This document shows positions 14,327-33,487 of a stretch of DNA of 33,487 nt, piece by piece (position 1 is the first letter of the stretch; each line of letters begins with the position of its first letter). A program made the position numbers and the translations under genes. Source of the DNA: Candidatus Siliceabacter maunaloa (lineage in GTDB: Bacteria > Actinomycetota > Thermoleophilia > Solirubrobacterales > Solirubrobacteraceae); the NCBI GenBank assembly GCA_024330185.1, contig JANDLV010000041.1:1-33487 (forward strand). The letters are read 5' to 3'. The notes below the pieces were generated by a model that worked only from the letters and a program-made list of their open reading frames with translations, did not search any database and was not told the DNA's origin.

Positions 14327-14484
14327 GGTGCCCGAGGGGTGCCGACGGCCGTCCGCTGTCTGCGGGAGGCAGGACCCCGGGTGGTCTCGGGTGTGAGAAC
14401 CGTCCACCTTGGTGCGCCCACACGAGGCCTTGCGTGGCCCATCCTGCTGTTCACCCAGTACGACCGGACAAGGAGACGTCCACC

Positions 14485-15438
14485 ATGCGCAGCAGGACCA
14501 TCATCACCGCCCTCACCACCGCCGCCACGCTTGGCCTCGCCGGCCCGGCCGCGGCGCAGACCGTGCTCTCCGAGCAGTCCCGGCCGTTCAGCGTCGATGC
14601 GACACCGGGCGTCATCGTGTTCAGCCAGTACCAAGCGGACATCGACGCCTACCGCCTCGTCGCCCGCGAGGACGGCGAGGAGCGCACGCTGAACGTCGAG
14701 CCCTCGCCCGAGCCCTTCGATGTCGACGTGGGTACGAGCTCGACCGGCAGGCTGGTCGCCGTCTACTCCCGCTCGGTCTCCGACGAGGAGGTCGACCTCT
14801 TCCGCTACAGCTTCGCCAGCGACAGCGAGACCCACCTGACCAGCCTGAGCATCGAAGACGCCGTCGAGCGCGACCCGTCCGTGCACCGCGGGCAGATCGC
14901 CTTCGTGCGCGCCACCCGCGAGGGTTCGCGCCTCATGATCGCCAACACCGGCGCCAACGGGGCGCCGCGCACGCTGGTCACCCGCCGCGGCAGCGTCGGC
15001 CCGATCCGCGACCCCGACCTCAGCAGCCTGCGCGTGGCCTACACCACCGTGGGCCAGGACGGCGACCGTCGCTTCCAGGCCATGCACGTGCGCAACCTGC
15101 GCGACGGCAAGGACCGCACCGTGAAGGTCGTGGCCAACGGGCAGCTCAGCTTCGCCGCCCTCACCGGCGCGTCGTTCAGCCACACCGGCAGGGCGCTGTA
15201 CTTCGCGAGCACCGCCGTCGGCTCGGGCACGGGCAACCGCTACCTGCGCTGGAGCGCCACGCAGGGCCTGTCCGAGACCCGCGGCACCAGCCAGGCCATC
15301 GACACAGCGTGGTCCGGCGGCTCACTCGGGCTGCTCGTCGTGCGCAACCCGGGCCCCGACGGCACGTGCAGCCGCGACTCGACGAAGGGCACCTGCGACC
15401 TGATCGCGACGGGCCCGCTGAGGTTCACCAGGCGGTGA
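14485..15438 (+). CDS. Secreted TolB/beta-propeller-like protein
   Basis: The 317-aa product begins with a typical Sec signal peptide (MRSRTIITALTTAATLGLAGPAAAQ, cleavage predicted after the AAA-Q region). The mature protein consists of repeated short blocks such as GVIVFSQYQADIDAYRLVAREDG and GQIAFVRATREGSRLMIANTG, which resemble the WD40-like beta-propeller repeats of TolB-type proteins. No enzyme motif was seen. The ATG at 14485 has an AAGGAGACG ribosome-binding site 6 nt upstream and is preferred to an in-frame GTG at 14434, which would put 17 residues ahead of the signal peptide. It is convergent with truA and ends 8 bp before a repeat array. Confidence 0.75.
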   Translation: MRSRTIITALTTAATLGLAGPAAAQTVLSEQSRPFSVDATPGVIVFSQYQADIDAYRLVAREDGEERTLNVEPSPEPFDVDVGTSSTGRLVAVYSRSVSDEEVDLFRYSFASDSETHLTSLSIEDAVERDPSVHRGQIAFVRATREGSRLMIANTGANGAPRTLVTRRGSVGPIRDPDLSSLRVAYTTVGQDGDRRFQAMHVRNLRDGKDRTVKVVANGQLSFAALTGASFSHTGRALYFASTAVGSGTGNRYLRWSATQGLSETRGTSQAIDTAWSGGSLGLLVVRNPGPDGTCSRDSTKGTCDLIATGPLRFTRR

Positions 15439-15446
15439 ACCGGTTT

Positions 15447-15566
15447 CGCCTTCGGTCCTCTCAAGTTCGGACCTGCGGCGACGTCACGCCTTCGGTCCTC
15501 TCAAGTTCGGACCTGCGGCGACGTCACGCCTTCGGTCCTCTCAAGTTCGGACCTGCGGCGACGTCA
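15447..15566 (+). repeat. Three perfect 40-bp tandem repeats at the 3' end of truA
   Basis: Units at 15447-15486, 15487-15526 and 15527-15566 are identical over 40 bp. Each begins CGCCTTCGGTCC and ends GGCGACGTCA, with the core GGTCCTCTCAAGTTCGGACC, itself an inverted repeat (GGTCC / GGACC around a 10-nt loop). There are no spacers, so this is not CRISPR. The third unit lies inside truA and the second supplies the truA stop. The core recurs in the second array at 16314-16421. Confidence 0.95.
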
Positions 15567-16291
15567 GAAGCGTCCTCGAAGGCCACCGAGGCCAGGGCCA
15601 GGCCGTGGGGCGGTGCGGTGGCCCCGGCCGCGCTGCGTGGCGCCCCCTCCAGCAGCGCGGCGAAGGCCTCGACGGTGTGCGCGTCGCGCGCGGCCTCGAG
15701 CATGGTGCCGACGAGCACCCGGTTCATGTGGCGCATGAAGGTGTCGGCCTCGATCCAGAAGGTCAGCACGTCGCCGTCGCGCTCCCAGCGCGCGGCCAGC
15801 ACCTCGCGGGTGAAGCGCGTGTGCCGTGTGTCGCTCGGGGTGAAGGCGGTGAAGTCGCGCGTCCCGACCAGGTGGGCCGCGCACGCGTGCAGCGCGGCCT
15901 CGTCCAGGCGGCCGGGGACCCACAGCGCGGTGGTGCGCTCGCGCACGGGGCGCGCACGACGGCACACGATGCGATAGCAGTAGGTGCGCGAGCGGGCGTC
16001 GCGCCGGGCGTCGAAGCCCGGTGGGGCGGGCGTGCTCTCCAGCACCGCCATGTCGTTGGGCAGCAGCACGTTGAGGCGCCCCGGGTCCAGCGCCTCGGCG
16101 GGGTAGGAGCACACCTGGCCCCAGGCGTGCACCCCGCGGTCGGTGCGCCCGGCCACGGTGACCGGCACGTCCTCGCGCAGGACGGTCGCGATGGCGTGCT
16201 CCAGCTCGGCCTGGACGGTGCGCTGCCCGGGCTGGCGCGCCCAGCCGGCGAAGTCGGTTCCGTCGTACTCCAGCACCACCTGTGTGGTCAT
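15524..16291 (-). CDS. truA: tRNA pseudouridine(38-40) synthase TruA
   Basis: TruA isomerises uridines 38-40 in the anticodon arm of tRNAs. The 255-aa product has the catalytic Asp51 in GRTDRGVHAWGQ, the N-terminal VVLEYDGTDFAGWARQPGQRTVQ, and RMVNRVLVG-like MRHMNRVLVGTMLE near the C-terminus. The conserved part ends around PHGLALASVAF. The last 13 residues (DVAAGPNLRGPKA) are encoded exactly by one 40-bp repeat unit, and the stop codon comes from the neighbouring unit. Repeat arrays lie on both sides. The start is ATG at 16291. It is downstream of dacB on the same strand. Confidence 0.96.
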   Translation of the reverse strand: MTTQVVLEYDGTDFAGWARQPGQRTVQAELEHAIATVLREDVPVTVAGRTDRGVHAWGQVCSYPAEALDPGRLNVLLPNDMAVLESTPAPPGFDARRDARSRTYCYRIVCRRARPVRERTTALWVPGRLDEAALHACAAHLVGTRDFTAFTPSDTRHTRFTREVLAARWERDGDVLTFWIEADTFMRHMNRVLVGTMLEAARDAHTVEAFAALLEGAPRSAAGATAPPHGLALASVAFEDASDVAAGPNLRGPKA

Positions 16292-16313
16292 GCGGCTGGT
16301 GGTATCAGACGGA

Positions 16314-16421
16314 GATCGGGTTTTGCCTCCGGTCCTCTCAAGTTCGGAAGATCGGGTTTCGCCTCCGGTCCTCTCAAGTTCGGAAGATCGGGTTTCGCCT
16401 CCGGTCCTCTCAAGTTCGGAC
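16314..16421 (+). repeat. Three 36-bp tandem repeats between dacB and truA
   Basis: Units at 16314-16349, 16350-16385 and 16386-16421 each begin GATCGGGTTT and contain CCTCCGGTCCTCTCAAG followed by TTCGGA. The first differs from the others by one base (T for C), and the third diverges in its last two bases, where it continues as CCTCCGGCGACGTTACC, resembling the end of the 40-bp unit. The shared core GGTCCTCTCAAGTTCGG and the orientation are the same as in the array at 15447-15566, but the period differs. Confidence 0.95.
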
Positions 16422-16438
16422 CTCCGGCGACGTTACCG

Positions 16439-17638
16439 TTACTCGTCCACGCGCGCGATCGACGCCGCCATGCGATCCTCGATGCGCTTGGCCGATGTGG
16501 TGTTCACGCCGTTGAGCAGGAACGCGAAGGCCACGTCGTCGCCCGCGTCGGTCACGCAGATGCCCGCGAGCGCGCTCACCCCGCGTAGTGTCCCCGTCTT
16601 GGCCGAGCAGCTGCCCTCGGCGGGGGTGTCACGCATGCGCTCGCGCAGGGTGCCCGTGCGCCCGGCGACCGCGAGCGAGGCGCGCAGGTCGGCGGCGATG
16701 CCCGTTTCGACGGCCTTCTCGAACAGGCGCACGACCTGGCGCGGAGTGGTGCGATTGGTGCGCGAGAGGCCGGAGCCGTCGCTGACCTTGAGATCAAGGC
16801 CCAGCTTCCTCATCTGTCCCCGGACCGCCGACTGACCGGCGCGGTGGGTGCCTGACCCCGCGAGCCGGGCTCCCATCGCCTTGAACAGCATCTCGGCGTA
16901 GAAATTGTCCGACGGCCGGTTGGTCACGTGGATGAGCGCCCGCACGGTCGGTGAGGCGATCCGGGCGAGCTCCCGGGCGCCCGCCGGCGCCATGCGCTCG
17001 GTGCCCCCACGCTGCACGTCGACCCCCGCGATGTCCAGCCATGCCGCGAAGCGGTCGGCGGCGTCGGCGGGCGGGGAGAGCCGGTCGTCGAAGCCGCGGC
17101 GGTAGGCCACGGCGCTGAGCACGCCGCCCATGAAGCCGTCGAAGCGCCCGGCGGTGCGCGTGCCGCCGCGGCGATCGTCGAACAGCGACTCGTCGCCGTA
17201 GACACGCCCGGTGACGCTCTTCACCCCCTGCGAGGCGAGGAGCCGCGCGAGGCGCTCGAGGCCGTCGCCGCTCAGGCTCGGGTCGCCGCCGCCCACCAGG
17301 TAGAGATCGCCGCGCAGCACGCCGTCGGGGCCGAGGGCTCCGTCGGTCAGCGCACGCGTGTCCAGCGTGGCGACCGGACCGAGGCGCAGCAGCGCGGTGG
17401 ACGTCGTGAAGAGCTTCTGCACGGAGGCGGGCACCCGCCGCACGTCGGCCCGGCGCTCGTAGAGGGTGGCACCGCTGTCGAGGTCGCGCACGAGCGCACC
17501 CGAGCTGCCGCCGGCCAGGCGCATCTCGCGGCTGAGCTTCGCGCGCAGGTCGTCGACGTCGTAGGCCTGCGCGGCGGTGGCGGGGCCGGCGCCCAGGAGG
17601 GCGGGCCCGAGCACGATGGCGAGAAGGGCTCGGCGCAT
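16439..17638 (-). CDS. dacB: D-alanyl-D-alanine carboxypeptidase/endopeptidase (PBP4, S13 family)
   Basis: This class C penicillin-binding protein trims peptidoglycan cross-links outside the membrane. The 399-aa product has a signal peptide (MRRALLAIVLGPALLGAGPATAAQ) and all three active-site motifs: SVQK at residues 72-75, SDN at 243-245 and KTG at 347-349. The ATG at 17638 is preferred because it begins the signal peptide; a TTG at 17683 would add 15 residues. The gene is divergent from the patatin-like gene and upstream of truA. Its stop lies 18 bp from the repeat array, so the array falls in the dacB 3' region. Confidence 0.93.
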   Translation of the reverse strand: MRRALLAIVLGPALLGAGPATAAQAYDVDDLRAKLSREMRLAGGSSGALVRDLDSGATLYERRADVRRVPASVQKLFTTSTALLRLGPVATLDTRALTDGALGPDGVLRGDLYLVGGGDPSLSGDGLERLARLLASQGVKSVTGRVYGDESLFDDRRGGTRTAGRFDGFMGGVLSAVAYRRGFDDRLSPPADAADRFAAWLDIAGVDVQRGGTERMAPAGARELARIASPTVRALIHVTNRPSDNFYAEMLFKAMGARLAGSGTHRAGQSAVRGQMRKLGLDLKVSDGSGLSRTNRTTPRQVVRLFEKAVETGIAADLRASLAVAGRTGTLRERMRDTPAEGSCSAKTGTLRGVSALAGICVTDAGDDVAFAFLLNGVNTTSAKRIEDRMAASIARVDE

Positions 17639-20140: not shown

Positions 20141-22390
20141 ATGCAAGCCCCCGGGGAGAAGGGAACGCCGATCTCAGCTCTGGCAGCACCGCTGGCGCCA
20201 CCGCCCGCCACGCAACGCACGGACGAGGAGTTGGTCGCCTCAGTGCGCCGCGGGGACGACGCGGCCTTCGGGGTGCTCTTCGAGCGCTACCGCCCCCGCC
20301 TGATCGCATTCGCTGCGGGCATGGTCGGCGACCACGGGCGCGCGGAGGACGTCACCCAGGAGGTGTTCATCTCCGCCCTGCGCCGGCTGCGGGCCACCGA
20401 CGCGCCGATCGCCTTCAAGCCGTGGATCTACGAGATCGCGCGCAATGCGTGCATCGACACCTTCCGCCGCTCCCGCCGTACCGACGAGGTGTCGCTGGAC
20501 GTCGAGGAGGGTCCGGTGGCCGGCATCGTCGCGCGCCTGGCCAACACGGCGCCGGGGCCGGTCACCGCGCTGGACGACAAGGAGCGGCTGACCGACCTGC
20601 GCGGCGCCTTCGGCGGCCTGTCGGACGCCGAGCGCGACGCTCTGGTCCTGCGCGAGCTCGAGGGCCGCTCCTACCGGGAGATCGGCGAGCGACTGGAGAT
20701 GGCGCGCCCGGCGGTCGAGTCCACGCTGTTCCGCGCACGGCGCAAGCTGGAGTTCGAGTACGGCGAGCTGCGCAGCGGAGAGCGCTGCCGGCGCGTGCAG
20801 GGCATCGTGGTCGCGATGGTTGCGGCAGGAGGCGAGGCCGGCGACGTGGGCGAGCCGGTCACCCGCGACGCCCGGCGTCTGGCGCGCCACGTGAGCCACT
20901 GCCAGCCCTGCCGCCGTGCGGCGCTGGCCGTCGGCGTGGCCGTCGACCCGGCGGAGGGCCGCCCGCTGCGCTCGCGGGTCGCGGGCCTGCTGCCGCTGCC
21001 CGCCTTCCTGCGCCAGGAGGGCGGAGCCCTGGCCTCACTCGCCGGTCACGCCGAGCCCGCCCTGGCCTGGGCCAAGGCGGTGGCCGCCGCGGCGACGGTC
21101 ACCGCGGTCGGCCTGGGCGCGGGCGTGACGGTCGAGGAGGGCGCCGGCGTGACCCTCGGGGCCGGCGGCGCTCAGCCGCTGGTCGAGACCGTATCCGGGG
21201 AGGGGCCCGGGGAGCCGTGGTGGGCCGGCGACGCGCAGGCCGCGGCGACCGGCGCCCGTGTTTCCGCCATGGCGCCGGCGCAGGGCCGTGAGGGTGCCGC
21301 GCTCGGCGCGGGCCGCGAGCCCGCCGGGCTGCTGACCGGCGGGAAGCTCACCCCGCCGTTGCGGCCGGACTCGGGGGACGACGCGCCCCCCGGCGGCCTC
21401 GCAGGCTCGTTGCTGCCCCGGCTCTTTCCCCAGCATCCCGAAGCACGGCGCGAGCTCGGCCACCCGATGGGCTCCGACCCTGGAGGCGCTCCCGATCCCT
21501 TCGGGGGTAAGTTGCGCGGAGATGCCACCGGCGGCCCGCAGGCTTCGGTCCCCACGGCGTCGCCGACGGCCATCGTGCAAGGTGCCAGCGACACTCTGCA
21601 CGCCAACGCGACGGGTGCGAGCCCCCTCGTCGCCGAGCTGCCGCTGCCGTCTCATGCGCCCCCGCTTGACGCCTCCACCCGGGCTCGCAGCGCGCAGCCG
21701 CTGATCGAGCTCGTGACCGGCGAGGGGCCGGGGGGGCCATGGAGGCCCCGCGGCGCGCAGGCCGCGGCCGCGGCGATCGGCTCCGATGGTGCTGCCATGG
21801 CGCCGCCGCCGCAGGGCCGTGACGGGTCGGGCCGCGACGGCGCCGGGAGGCGCGCTGCGCCCGGCGACCCGGCGCTCCGCGCGGGCCCGGGTGACGCGGG
21901 CACCGCGCCCGCAGCGCCTGGCCCCGGGAATGTCGCCGGCCGCGGTGGTGACGGGGCCGGCCCGCTGACCGGCGAGGGGCTCGCCCCCGCGCCCACCGAC
22001 TCGGGTGGGGCTGCGCCGACCGACTTGGGTGGGGCCGGGCCGACCCGTCTGGGTGGGGCGGCGCCCACCGACGGCATCGAGGACCCGGCGCTCGACGGGG
22101 TTCTCTTTCCGCCTTTCGCTTCGCAGCCCGAGGGCGTGCCTGAGGTGCCGCGCGAGCTCGGCGACGCGACGGGCTCCGACGGCGTCGGCGCCTCCGACCC
22201 TGGCGTAAGGGGTACAGTGACCGGTGGCGACGTGACCGGCGGCCCGCAGCAGGCCTCGGTCCACGCGGCGTCGCCGACGGTCACCGTGGAAAGCGCCAGC
22301 GACACCCAGCAGGCCACCGCGACGGGCGCGGGCGCGCCGGTCGCCGAGCTGCCGTCGTATGCGCCCGCGCCCGACGCCCCCACCTCCTAG
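20141..22390 (+). CDS. ECF sigma factor fused to a zinc-finger anti-sigma-like segment with long repetitive tail
   Basis: The 749-aa product combines normally separate parts. Residues about 31-115 are sigma region 2 (LVASVRRGDDAAFGVLFERY ... AEDVTQEVFISALR); about 150-207 are region 4 (LSDAERDALVLRELEGRSYREIGERL). Cys216 and H250-x3-C254-x2-C257 match the ZAS/zf-HC2 zinc motif of anti-sigma factors. A hydrophobic stretch at about 306-328 is a probable transmembrane helix. Residues about 343-749 are Gly/Ala/Pro-rich low complexity with a large internal duplication and three 8-residue repeats near residue 620. If the helix inserts, the tail would be extracellular and the sigma domain tethered at the membrane. 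The whole is one uninterrupted frame. Related fused sigma factors may exist in this class; function and trigger are unknown. Confidence 0.88.
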   Translation: MQAPGEKGTPISALAAPLAPPPATQRTDEELVASVRRGDDAAFGVLFERYRPRLIAFAAGMVGDHGRAEDVTQEVFISALRRLRATDAPIAFKPWIYEIARNACIDTFRRSRRTDEVSLDVEEGPVAGIVARLANTAPGPVTALDDKERLTDLRGAFGGLSDAERDALVLRELEGRSYREIGERLEMARPAVESTLFRARRKLEFEYGELRSGERCRRVQGIVVAMVAAGGEAGDVGEPVTRDARRLARHVSHCQPCRRAALAVGVAVDPAEGRPLRSRVAGLLPLPAFLRQEGGALASLAGHAEPALAWAKAVAAAATVTAVGLGAGVTVEEGAGVTLGAGGAQPLVETVSGEGPGEPWWAGDAQAAATGARVSAMAPAQGREGAALGAGREPAGLLTGGKLTPPLRPDSGDDAPPGGLAGSLLPRLFPQHPEARRELGHPMGSDPGGAPDPFGGKLRGDATGGPQASVPTASPTAIVQGASDTLHANATGASPLVAELPLPSHAPPLDASTRARSAQPLIELVTGEGPGGPWRPRGAQAAAAAIGSDGAAMAPPPQGRDGSGRDGAGRRAAPGDPALRAGPGDAGTAPAAPGPGNVAGRGGDGAGPLTGEGLAPAPTDSGGAAPTDLGGAGPTRLGGAAPTDGIEDPALDGVLFPPFASQPEGVPEVPRELGDATGSDGVGASDPGVRGTVTGGDVTGGPQQASVHAASPTVTVESASDTQQATATGAGAPVAELPSYAPAPDAPTS
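21169..22387 (+). repeat. Imperfect internal duplication within the sigma-factor tail
   Basis: Copy A (about 21169-21690) and copy B (about 21692-22387) encode the same ordered blocks: AQPLVETVSGEGPG and AQPLIELVTGEGPG; LFPQ..RRELG..GSD and LFPP..PRELG..GSD; GPQASVPTASPT and GPQQASVHAASPT; GASDTLHANATGA and SASDTQQATATGA; VAELPLPSHAP and VAELPSYAP. Copy B is longer through a Gly/Pro insertion. Confidence 0.8.
21998..22069 (+). repeat. Three 24-bp tandem repeats encoding an 8-residue unit
   Basis: Units at 21998-22021, 22022-22045 and 22046-22069 encode DSGGAAPT, DLGGAGPT and RLGGAAPT inside copy B of the sigma-factor tail. Confidence 0.85.
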
Positions 22391-33238: not shown

Positions 33239-33487
33239 TCAGGCCCTGGTCGTGGACATCCTCGTCCTGAGCCCGCCCCCCAGCAGAAGCATGACCATGC
33301 CTGCGAGGGCCAGGATGCCGACGTCCAGCCCGGTGAAGGGAAGGGCCTGCTCCGGGCCTGATCCGTCGTTCCCTGTGCTCGGGCCCCCCTTGCCGCCACC
33401 GCCGGTCGTCGTCGTGTCGCCGCCGCCGAAGGTGACGGTGGTCGTGTCGCCGGTGCCGGTGCCGGTGCCGGTGCCGGTGCCTGTCCC
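33239..33487 (-). CDS. C-terminus of an LPFTG cell-wall-anchored surface protein (partial)
   Basis: The frame enters from the right edge and gives 82 residues. It begins with (Gly-Thr) repeats, continues with a Gly/Thr-rich spacer, and ends with a sortase sorting signal: LPFTG, a hydrophobic segment (LDVGILALAGMVMLLLGG) and a short basic tail (RTRMSTTRA). A sortase would cleave between Thr and Gly and attach the protein to the cell wall. The start and the functional domain lie outside the window. No sortase gene is in the window. Confidence 0.75.
   Translation of the reverse strand, partial: GTGTGTGTGTGTGDTTTVTFGGGDTTTTGGGGKGGPSTGNDGSGPEQALPFTGLDVGILALAGMVMLLLGGGLRTRMSTTRA
33451..33480 (+). 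repeat. CGGTGC hexanucleotide microsatellite
   Basis: Five perfect CGGTGC units encode alternating Gly-Thr on the minus strand in the spacer of the LPFTG protein. Such a tract can change length by slippage without shifting the frame. Confidence 0.8.

What the first reader, a model, noticed from the sequence alone, without database searches (positions are those of the whole stretch)
15447..16421. Two tandem-repeat arrays with a shared core flank truA
Three 40-bp units (15447-15566) and three 36-bp units (16314-16421) share the core GGTCCTCTCAAGTTCGG in the same orientation, with different periods. They bracket truA almost exactly. Copies within each array are (near-)identical, so expansion is recent or sequence is conserved by gene conversion. 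The core contains a GGTCC/GGACC inverted repeat. Possible roles: an REP-like family, protein-binding arrays, or transcription-end elements. TCAAGT resembles the -35 of flagellar sigma-28 promoters, but a GCCGATA -10 is lacking, so I weight that low.
Basis: partly seen in the sequence, partly recalled or inferred. Interest (0 to 1): 0.65.

Follow-up and report, generated by a model that had tools for sequence, protein, structure and literature searches.

The report
Stop-codon-anchored mobile palindromic repeat family
The two repeat arrays beside truA are copies of a roughly 50-base hairpin-forming repeat scattered through this bacterium and its relatives, which sits directly behind the stop codons of genes, usually supplies the stop codon itself, and then multiplies in tandem on the spot.

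Summary
In detail: six exact copies of the 17-mer lie in the window (0.08 expected). It is not local. The genome holds 75 copies (63 exact) in 35 clusters of 1-5 tandem units. Read on the other strand, the unit is a hairpin: GTRA|CGTCG(X)CC-GNA-GGTCC-loop-GGACC-GNA-GG(X')CGAAA. At 22 own-genome genes the in-frame stop codon is exactly the TRA of the element; most others sit 4-7 nt behind a native stop. Stops at these sites are TAA in 9/22, against 8/175 elsewhere (p=7e-6), so the element supplies the stop. In a same-genus genome, 16 of 17 tested gene ends lack it, with the stop at the same codon in 7 and one codon away in 5. The stems keep pairing through compensatory changes. Relatives carry the same scaffold with other tips, in 30 of 232 genomes of the order. 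Arrays have many periods (36-47 bp) and identical units, so each grew locally. Best reading: a non-autonomous mobile palindromic repeat, REP/MIRU-like, at stop codons, at little cost to the host. No Y1/RAYT transposase is found; what mobilises it is unknown. The sigma-28 and terminator readings are not supported. "Bracketing truA" reflects two separate insertions.

The parts
15439..15566 (-). Array 1: three 40-bp units of the element at the 3' end of truA; its far end abuts the stop of the convergent gene 14434-15438
15524..15526 (-). truA stop codon TGA, supplied by the second unit; truA reads through one unit (adds DVAAGPNLRGPKA)
15564..15566 (-). TRA (TGA) at the left end of the truA-proximal unit, out of frame for truA
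16313..16435 (-). Array 2: three units (36-bp period) behind the D-Ala-D-Ala carboxypeptidase gene
16433..16435 (-). Element-borne TAA, 6 nt behind the native carboxypeptidase stop (TAA, 16439-16441)
15454..15470 (+). Core copy 1 of array 1 (sense strand: CCGAACTTGAGAGGACC, apical hairpin)
15494..15510 (+). Core copy 2 of array 1
15534..15550 (+). Core copy 3 of array 1
16331..16347 (+). Core copy 1 of array 2
16367..16383 (+). Core copy 2 of array 2
16403..16419 (+). Core copy 3 of array 2
15524..16291 (-). truA (tRNA pseudouridine synthase), host gene of array 1
   Evidence: PF01416
16439..17683 (-). D-Ala-D-Ala carboxypeptidase S13, host gene of array 2
   Evidence: PF02113
14434..15438 (+). 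Convergent gene of unknown family, ends at the far edge of array 1

Best explanation
The arrays are two insertions of a dispersed, non-autonomous palindromic repeat of about 50 bp. Its functional strand is the mRNA-sense strand: (G)TRA|CGTCG(X)CC-GNA-GGTCC-loop-GGACC-GNA-GG(X')CGAAA, a two-stem hairpin with a symmetrical GNA/GNA internal loop and mostly a CTTG or GGTTCC tip. It lodges immediately behind the stop codon of a gene, so its own TRA becomes the stop codon (or sits a few nt behind the native one), leaving the protein intact to within about one codon. After insertion, units duplicate in tandem at that site with locus-specific periods. Shown: dispersion, stop-codon register, element-supplied stops, empty sites in a relative, compensatory stem changes, local array growth. 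Inferred: mobility by an unknown trans-acting enzyme acting on the hairpin, and purifying selection plus a TRA-containing target as the reason for the stop-codon register.
For: 75 copies in 35 clusters on both strands, reversed-pattern control 0; they share the outer scaffold. The element lies behind an upstream gene in sense orientation at 29 of 32 scorable clusters; 14:1 among co-directional pairs. In-frame stop exactly at TRA for 22 own genes; stop usage TAA 9/22 vs 8/175 (p=7e-6), TAG 1/22 vs 55/175 (p=0.006). In 40 further loci from nine genomes, 13 have offset 0 and 14 more have the native stop 3-10 nt upstream. In same-genus G001, 16 of 17 orthologous gene ends lack it; stop at the same codon in 7, one codon off in 5. 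93.7% of cells paired, 4 pairs with two-sided changes, 0/500 shuffles as high on percentage paired, two-sided changes and covariation score; sliding the partner destroys pairing. The family is in 30/232 genomes of the order, patchy and multicopy. Spacings 36-47 bp, near-identical units within arrays.
Against: No mobilising enzyme identified; Y1/RAYT absent from the own genome. No target-site duplication seen. Right end is ragged. Genes were called by a home-made codon-usage caller. Polarity rests mainly on one relative. Pair 10-41 is non-standard (mostly A.G) in 12 of 21 sequences. The order-wide model contains the GTRA columns, so hits are biased to carry it (the reading frame is not). About a third of the 40 further loci are not close behind a called stop.
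Confidence: 0.72

Rival explanations
1. A functional 3'-UTR element (mRNA stabiliser, processing or termination hairpin) that selection keeps behind stop codons; copies spread but are retained for function.
For: Sense-strand location at 29/32 sites; sense-strand GNA/GNA loops and compensatory changes; 15 convergent pairs among 32 sites against 41 of 251 adjacent pairs in the fetched regions.
Against: Empty at 16 of 17 orthologous gene ends in a same-genus genome and absent from most relatives; no U-tract terminator; host genes look unrelated (own reading).
Confidence: 0.2
2. Arrays of sigma-28-like promoters (TCAA-N15-GACGTYAC).
For: TCAAGT with a 15-nt spacing to GACGTYAC can be read on the + strand.
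Against: Direction is into the 3' end of a gene, antisense; the -10-like box is a stop-codon complement that changes between TCA, TTA and CTA; inner units of most arrays lack it; no sigma-70-type site.
Confidence: 0.02
3. A local duplication without wider meaning.
For: Units within one array are (near-)identical.
Against: 75 copies at 35 places in the genome and the same scaffold in 30 genomes.
Confidence: 0.01
4. Insertion is steered to stop codons by a translation- or RNA-level process (for example an RNA intermediate joined at a stop codon), not by DNA target preference plus selection.
For: Only TGA/TAA/TAG occur in front of CGTCG at nearly all sites; stop position kept to within one codon in 12 of 16 upstream genes compared.
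Against: No reverse transcriptase was looked for; compact intergenic regions make the stop one of the few tolerated TRA sites; TAA/TGA bias shows the element brings its own TRA; some copies lie inside antisense ORFs.
Confidence: 0.05

Closest known systems
Mycobacterial interspersed repetitive units (MIRUs)
   Same: Short dispersed repeats that appear mobile, insert at gene junctions with little effect on the genes, and form tandem arrays of varying copy number (PMC12548453 for mobility and start-codon insertion; array behaviour from own knowledge).
   Different: No conserved coupled ORF: TAA versions give GTAA, which lacks the start codon, and about half the sites are convergent gene pairs with no downstream gene to couple to. 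A conserved hairpin is the core here.
REP / BIME elements with RAYT (Y1) transposases
   Same: Small palindromic hairpin, dozens of copies, 3' of genes, subfamilies that differ in hairpin sequence.
   Different: No Y1_Tnp gene in the own genome or in several copy-rich relatives; no general GTAG foot; fixed register to the stop codon and same-orientation tandem arrays.
Rickettsia palindromic elements (own knowledge)
   Same: Palindromic repeats that can be read in frame inside genes; some copies here sit inside antisense ORFs or extend proteins (truA).
   Different: The main niche here is directly behind stop codons, not inside genes.
IS200/IS605-type palindrome-associated elements (own knowledge)
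   Same: Hairpin end plus a fixed short left-flank sequence, no target duplication.
   Different: No transposase linked to the element; not shown that GTRA is a cleavage site.

Membership tests
REP/RAYT | Dispersed short palindrome in extragenic space, many copies | tested here: met
   75 copies, 35 clusters; gene-end location
REP/RAYT | RAYT / Y1 transposase in the genome | tested here: not met
   PF01797: none in G000 (95% complete), G001, G010, G018, G030, G035, G050, G053
REP/RAYT | Conserved GTAG-type tetranucleotide at the hairpin foot | tested here: not met
   Left end is GTRA followed by CGTCG; GTAG in a few copies only
MIRU | Insertion at stop/start codon junctions | tested here: inconclusive
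   Stop codon register met; start-codon overlap only in some copies such as L195, L201, L217
[quoted passage not shown]
   TAA-type left ends give GTAA or CTAA, no start codon (9 of 22); 15 convergent sites
MIRU | Sequence relation to mycobacterial MIRU | not tested
   no MIRU sequence was fetched
Intrinsic terminator | G+C-rich stem followed by a T run | tested here: not met
   0 sites in 15300-16600
sigma-28 promoter | -35 TAAA and -10 GCCGATAA with 15-nt spacing, pointing at a gene start | tested here: not met
   -10 lacking; orientation antisense to the preceding gene
Rfam RNA families | Match to a described RNA family | tested here: not met
   no gathering-level hit in the window, only chance-level hits in five loci at E up to 5

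The most novel reading that the evidence does not exclude
A bacterial mobile repeat whose insertion is truly directed to stop codons, carrying its own stop triplet as a built-in safe-landing device, possibly through an RNA- or translation-level step.
Probability: 0.07. Interest if true: 0.85.

Novelty: new variant of a known kind. Interest (0 to 1): 0.55.

Why it matters
It offers a clear, countable case of how a small mobile repeat can spread through a compact, gene-dense genome: it brings a stop codon, lands where the host's stop codon was, and keeps the protein length. That makes the question of targeting versus selection directly testable. It also explains short C-terminal extensions (truA) and arrays that may vary in copy number and could serve as strain markers, and it could be mistaken for coding sequence or promoters in routine annotation.

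Tried and rejected
Local duplication (refuted). Sigma-28 or sigma-70 promoter. Intrinsic terminator. Known RNA family. RAYT-driven REP. Viral origin: exact core in 0 viral contigs. Integron attC site: AAC..GTT ends can be read in TAAC copies but not in TGAC copies, and copies are scattered in both orientations. Covariation of the central N of the two GNA loops: none apparent. Truncation by random in-frame insertion as the reason for the stop register: most stops lie at or within one codon of the relative's stop. An autonomous longer version with the same ends: none noticed among the fetched own loci. Papers on REP-type repeats that also mention Solirubrobacter: none found.

Full report
Observation. 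Tandem Repeats Finder returns the two arrays as described (15447-15566, period 40, 100%; 16313-16420, period 36, 98%). The 17-mer occurs six times in the window without mismatch, all on the + strand, against 0.08 expected. Outside the arrays the window has no further copy.

Genome-wide. In the window's own genome (3.79 Mb, 120 contigs) the 17-mer occurs 75 times with up to two mismatches, 63 exactly, 40 forward and 35 reverse; the reversed control pattern gives none. These form 35 clusters: 13 single copies, 9 pairs, 9 triplets, 3 of four and 1 of five, with spacings of 36, 37, 38, 40, 42, 43, 44, 45 and 47 bp, plus two of 63 and 75. They share an outer scaffold. The N positions vary between loci but are usually the same between units of one array. 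In most arrays only the first unit after the stop codon has the TRACGTCG end. The many different periods and near-identical units mean that each array arose by duplication at its own site.

Position. A codon-usage gene caller shows that the element follows an upstream gene on the sense strand at 29 of 32 scorable clusters: 15 convergent pairs and 14 co-directional pairs in sense, one co-directional in antisense, two divergent. At 22 own-genome genes (main and other tip types) the in-frame stop codon is exactly the TRA in front of CGTCG; most others have the native stop 4, 6 or 7 nt upstream. Stop usage at the 22 sites is TGA 12, TAA 9, TAG 1, against TGA 112, TAG 55, TAA 8 at genes without an element nearby (TAA p=7e-6, TAG p=0.006). 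The element therefore usually provides the stop. Exceptions have a read-through tail: truA in this window passes through one unit and ends in the next, gaining DVAAGPNLRGPKA.

Relatives. The same-genus genome G001 was compared at 17 gene ends. At 16 the element is absent; at one (L072/L120) G001 has its own version, with a different tip and in the opposite orientation. The stop codon lies at the same codon in 7 (L060, L061, L066, L071, L072, L075, L089) and one codon away in 5 (L051, L052, L057, L073, L081). The own-lineage tip GAACTTGAGA, against GAGCTTGCGA or GCCGGTTCCGGC in relatives, suggests that the own copies spread within this lineage; a single copy with the GAGCTTGCGA tip and intermediates remain in the own genome.

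Family. The scaffold with other tips occurs in the own genome (L077-L090), G001 (L091-L096) and other genera (L097-L116). A gapless alignment of 21 elements gives 93.7% standard pairs, four pairs with changes on both sides, and none of 500 shuffles as high on those measures and on the covariation score; sliding the partner by one column drops pairing to 39-45%. Pair 10-41 takes three Watson-Crick forms (C-G, U-A, G-C) but is non-standard in 12 sequences. A covariance model finds the family in 30 of 232 genomes of the order, 29 of them in the window's family, in 13 genera, with up to 35 matches, often in one species and not in its congener. In a class-wide sample of 299 the only hit outside that family was one weak match. 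A named record with the full element, including a CGCTC/GAGCG compensated stem, is a Solirubrobacterales MAG (L045), so the host is probably in Solirubrobacterales (inference).

Independent check. Forty further loci from nine genomes, none used to build the model, were examined. Thirteen have the in-frame stop exactly at TRA, and 14 more have the native stop 3-10 nt upstream. In some operons the element follows an ATGA or GTGA stop/start overlap (L195, L201, L217). Several G053 and G080 copies lie inside long antisense ORFs; the antisense strand of the element has no stop codon in the frames I read by eye. The model includes the GTRA columns, so the presence of GTRA in these hits is not independent evidence, but the reading-frame relation is.

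Which strand is structured. The symmetrical GNA/GNA internal loop can form sheared G.A pairs on the sense strand only; on the other strand it is TNC/TNC (general RNA structure knowledge; inference). Single units fold at -16.2 kcal/mol on the sense and -14.3 on the other strand, and the whole array 1 has z = -3.5 on the sense and -0.9 on the other strand. Single units of the own type are not remarkable against shuffles (z about -0.95); a GCCGGTTCCGGC unit is (z = -4.4).

Mechanism. Shown: dispersion, register, stop supply, absence in a relative, local array growth, conserved pairing. Inferred: mobility by an enzyme acting in trans on the hairpin; survival mainly at stop codons because an element that carries its own TRA and lands there leaves the protein nearly unchanged. 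A Y1/RAYT transposase is absent from the own genome and from several copy-rich relatives, so the standard REP engine is not the driver as far as tested. No reverse transcriptase or other recombinase was searched.

Comparison. MIRUs of mycobacteria are the nearest analogue in behaviour: mobile short repeats that insert at gene junctions (PMC12548453), and that form variable tandem arrays (own knowledge). The defining coupled ORF is not met here. REP elements are the nearest in structure, but their transposase and foot motif are not met. I therefore file it as a new variant of the known kind 'small dispersed palindromic repeats', not as a MIRU or REP.

Limits. One draft genome of 95% completeness; a home-made gene caller; one close relative for polarity; no expression data; literature library limited to open-access papers.

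Noticed in passing
L129, L131, L133 (genome G001): G001 has another repeat around gene ends, ..GTGTCGCTATCGCGACCTGGGGACCCGCCTGCGG..GGCCACATGGCCGCC.., also starting near stop codons.
   Followed up: no
L196, L199, L203 (G053); L230 (G001); L232, L233 (G080): Element copies inside long antisense ORFs, suggesting in-frame insertion into coding sequence.
   Followed up: partly
L195, L201, L215, L217: Element directly behind stop codons that overlap or adjoin the next gene's start (ATGA/GTGA in L195, L201, L217), so the downstream protein may carry an element-encoded N-terminal stretch.
   Followed up: no
L103 and L106; L220 and L109: Different species carry the element behind the same gene (..PGPKRKHGNIPL*; ..EMLFIK*) with different offset, tip or stem letters: shared ancestry or repeated insertion at one stop codon.
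   Followed up: no
own contig ends C46, C49, C31, C40: Several contigs end inside or next to arrays, so true copy numbers may be higher and arrays break the assembly.
   Followed up: no
window 33449-33481: Perfect hexamer repeat GCCGGT x 5.5 near the end of the window.
   Followed up: no
window 20141-22390: Large ORF with N-terminal sigma-70 region 2 and region 4 domains (ECF-like) and a long C-terminal part without a Pfam match.
   Followed up: no
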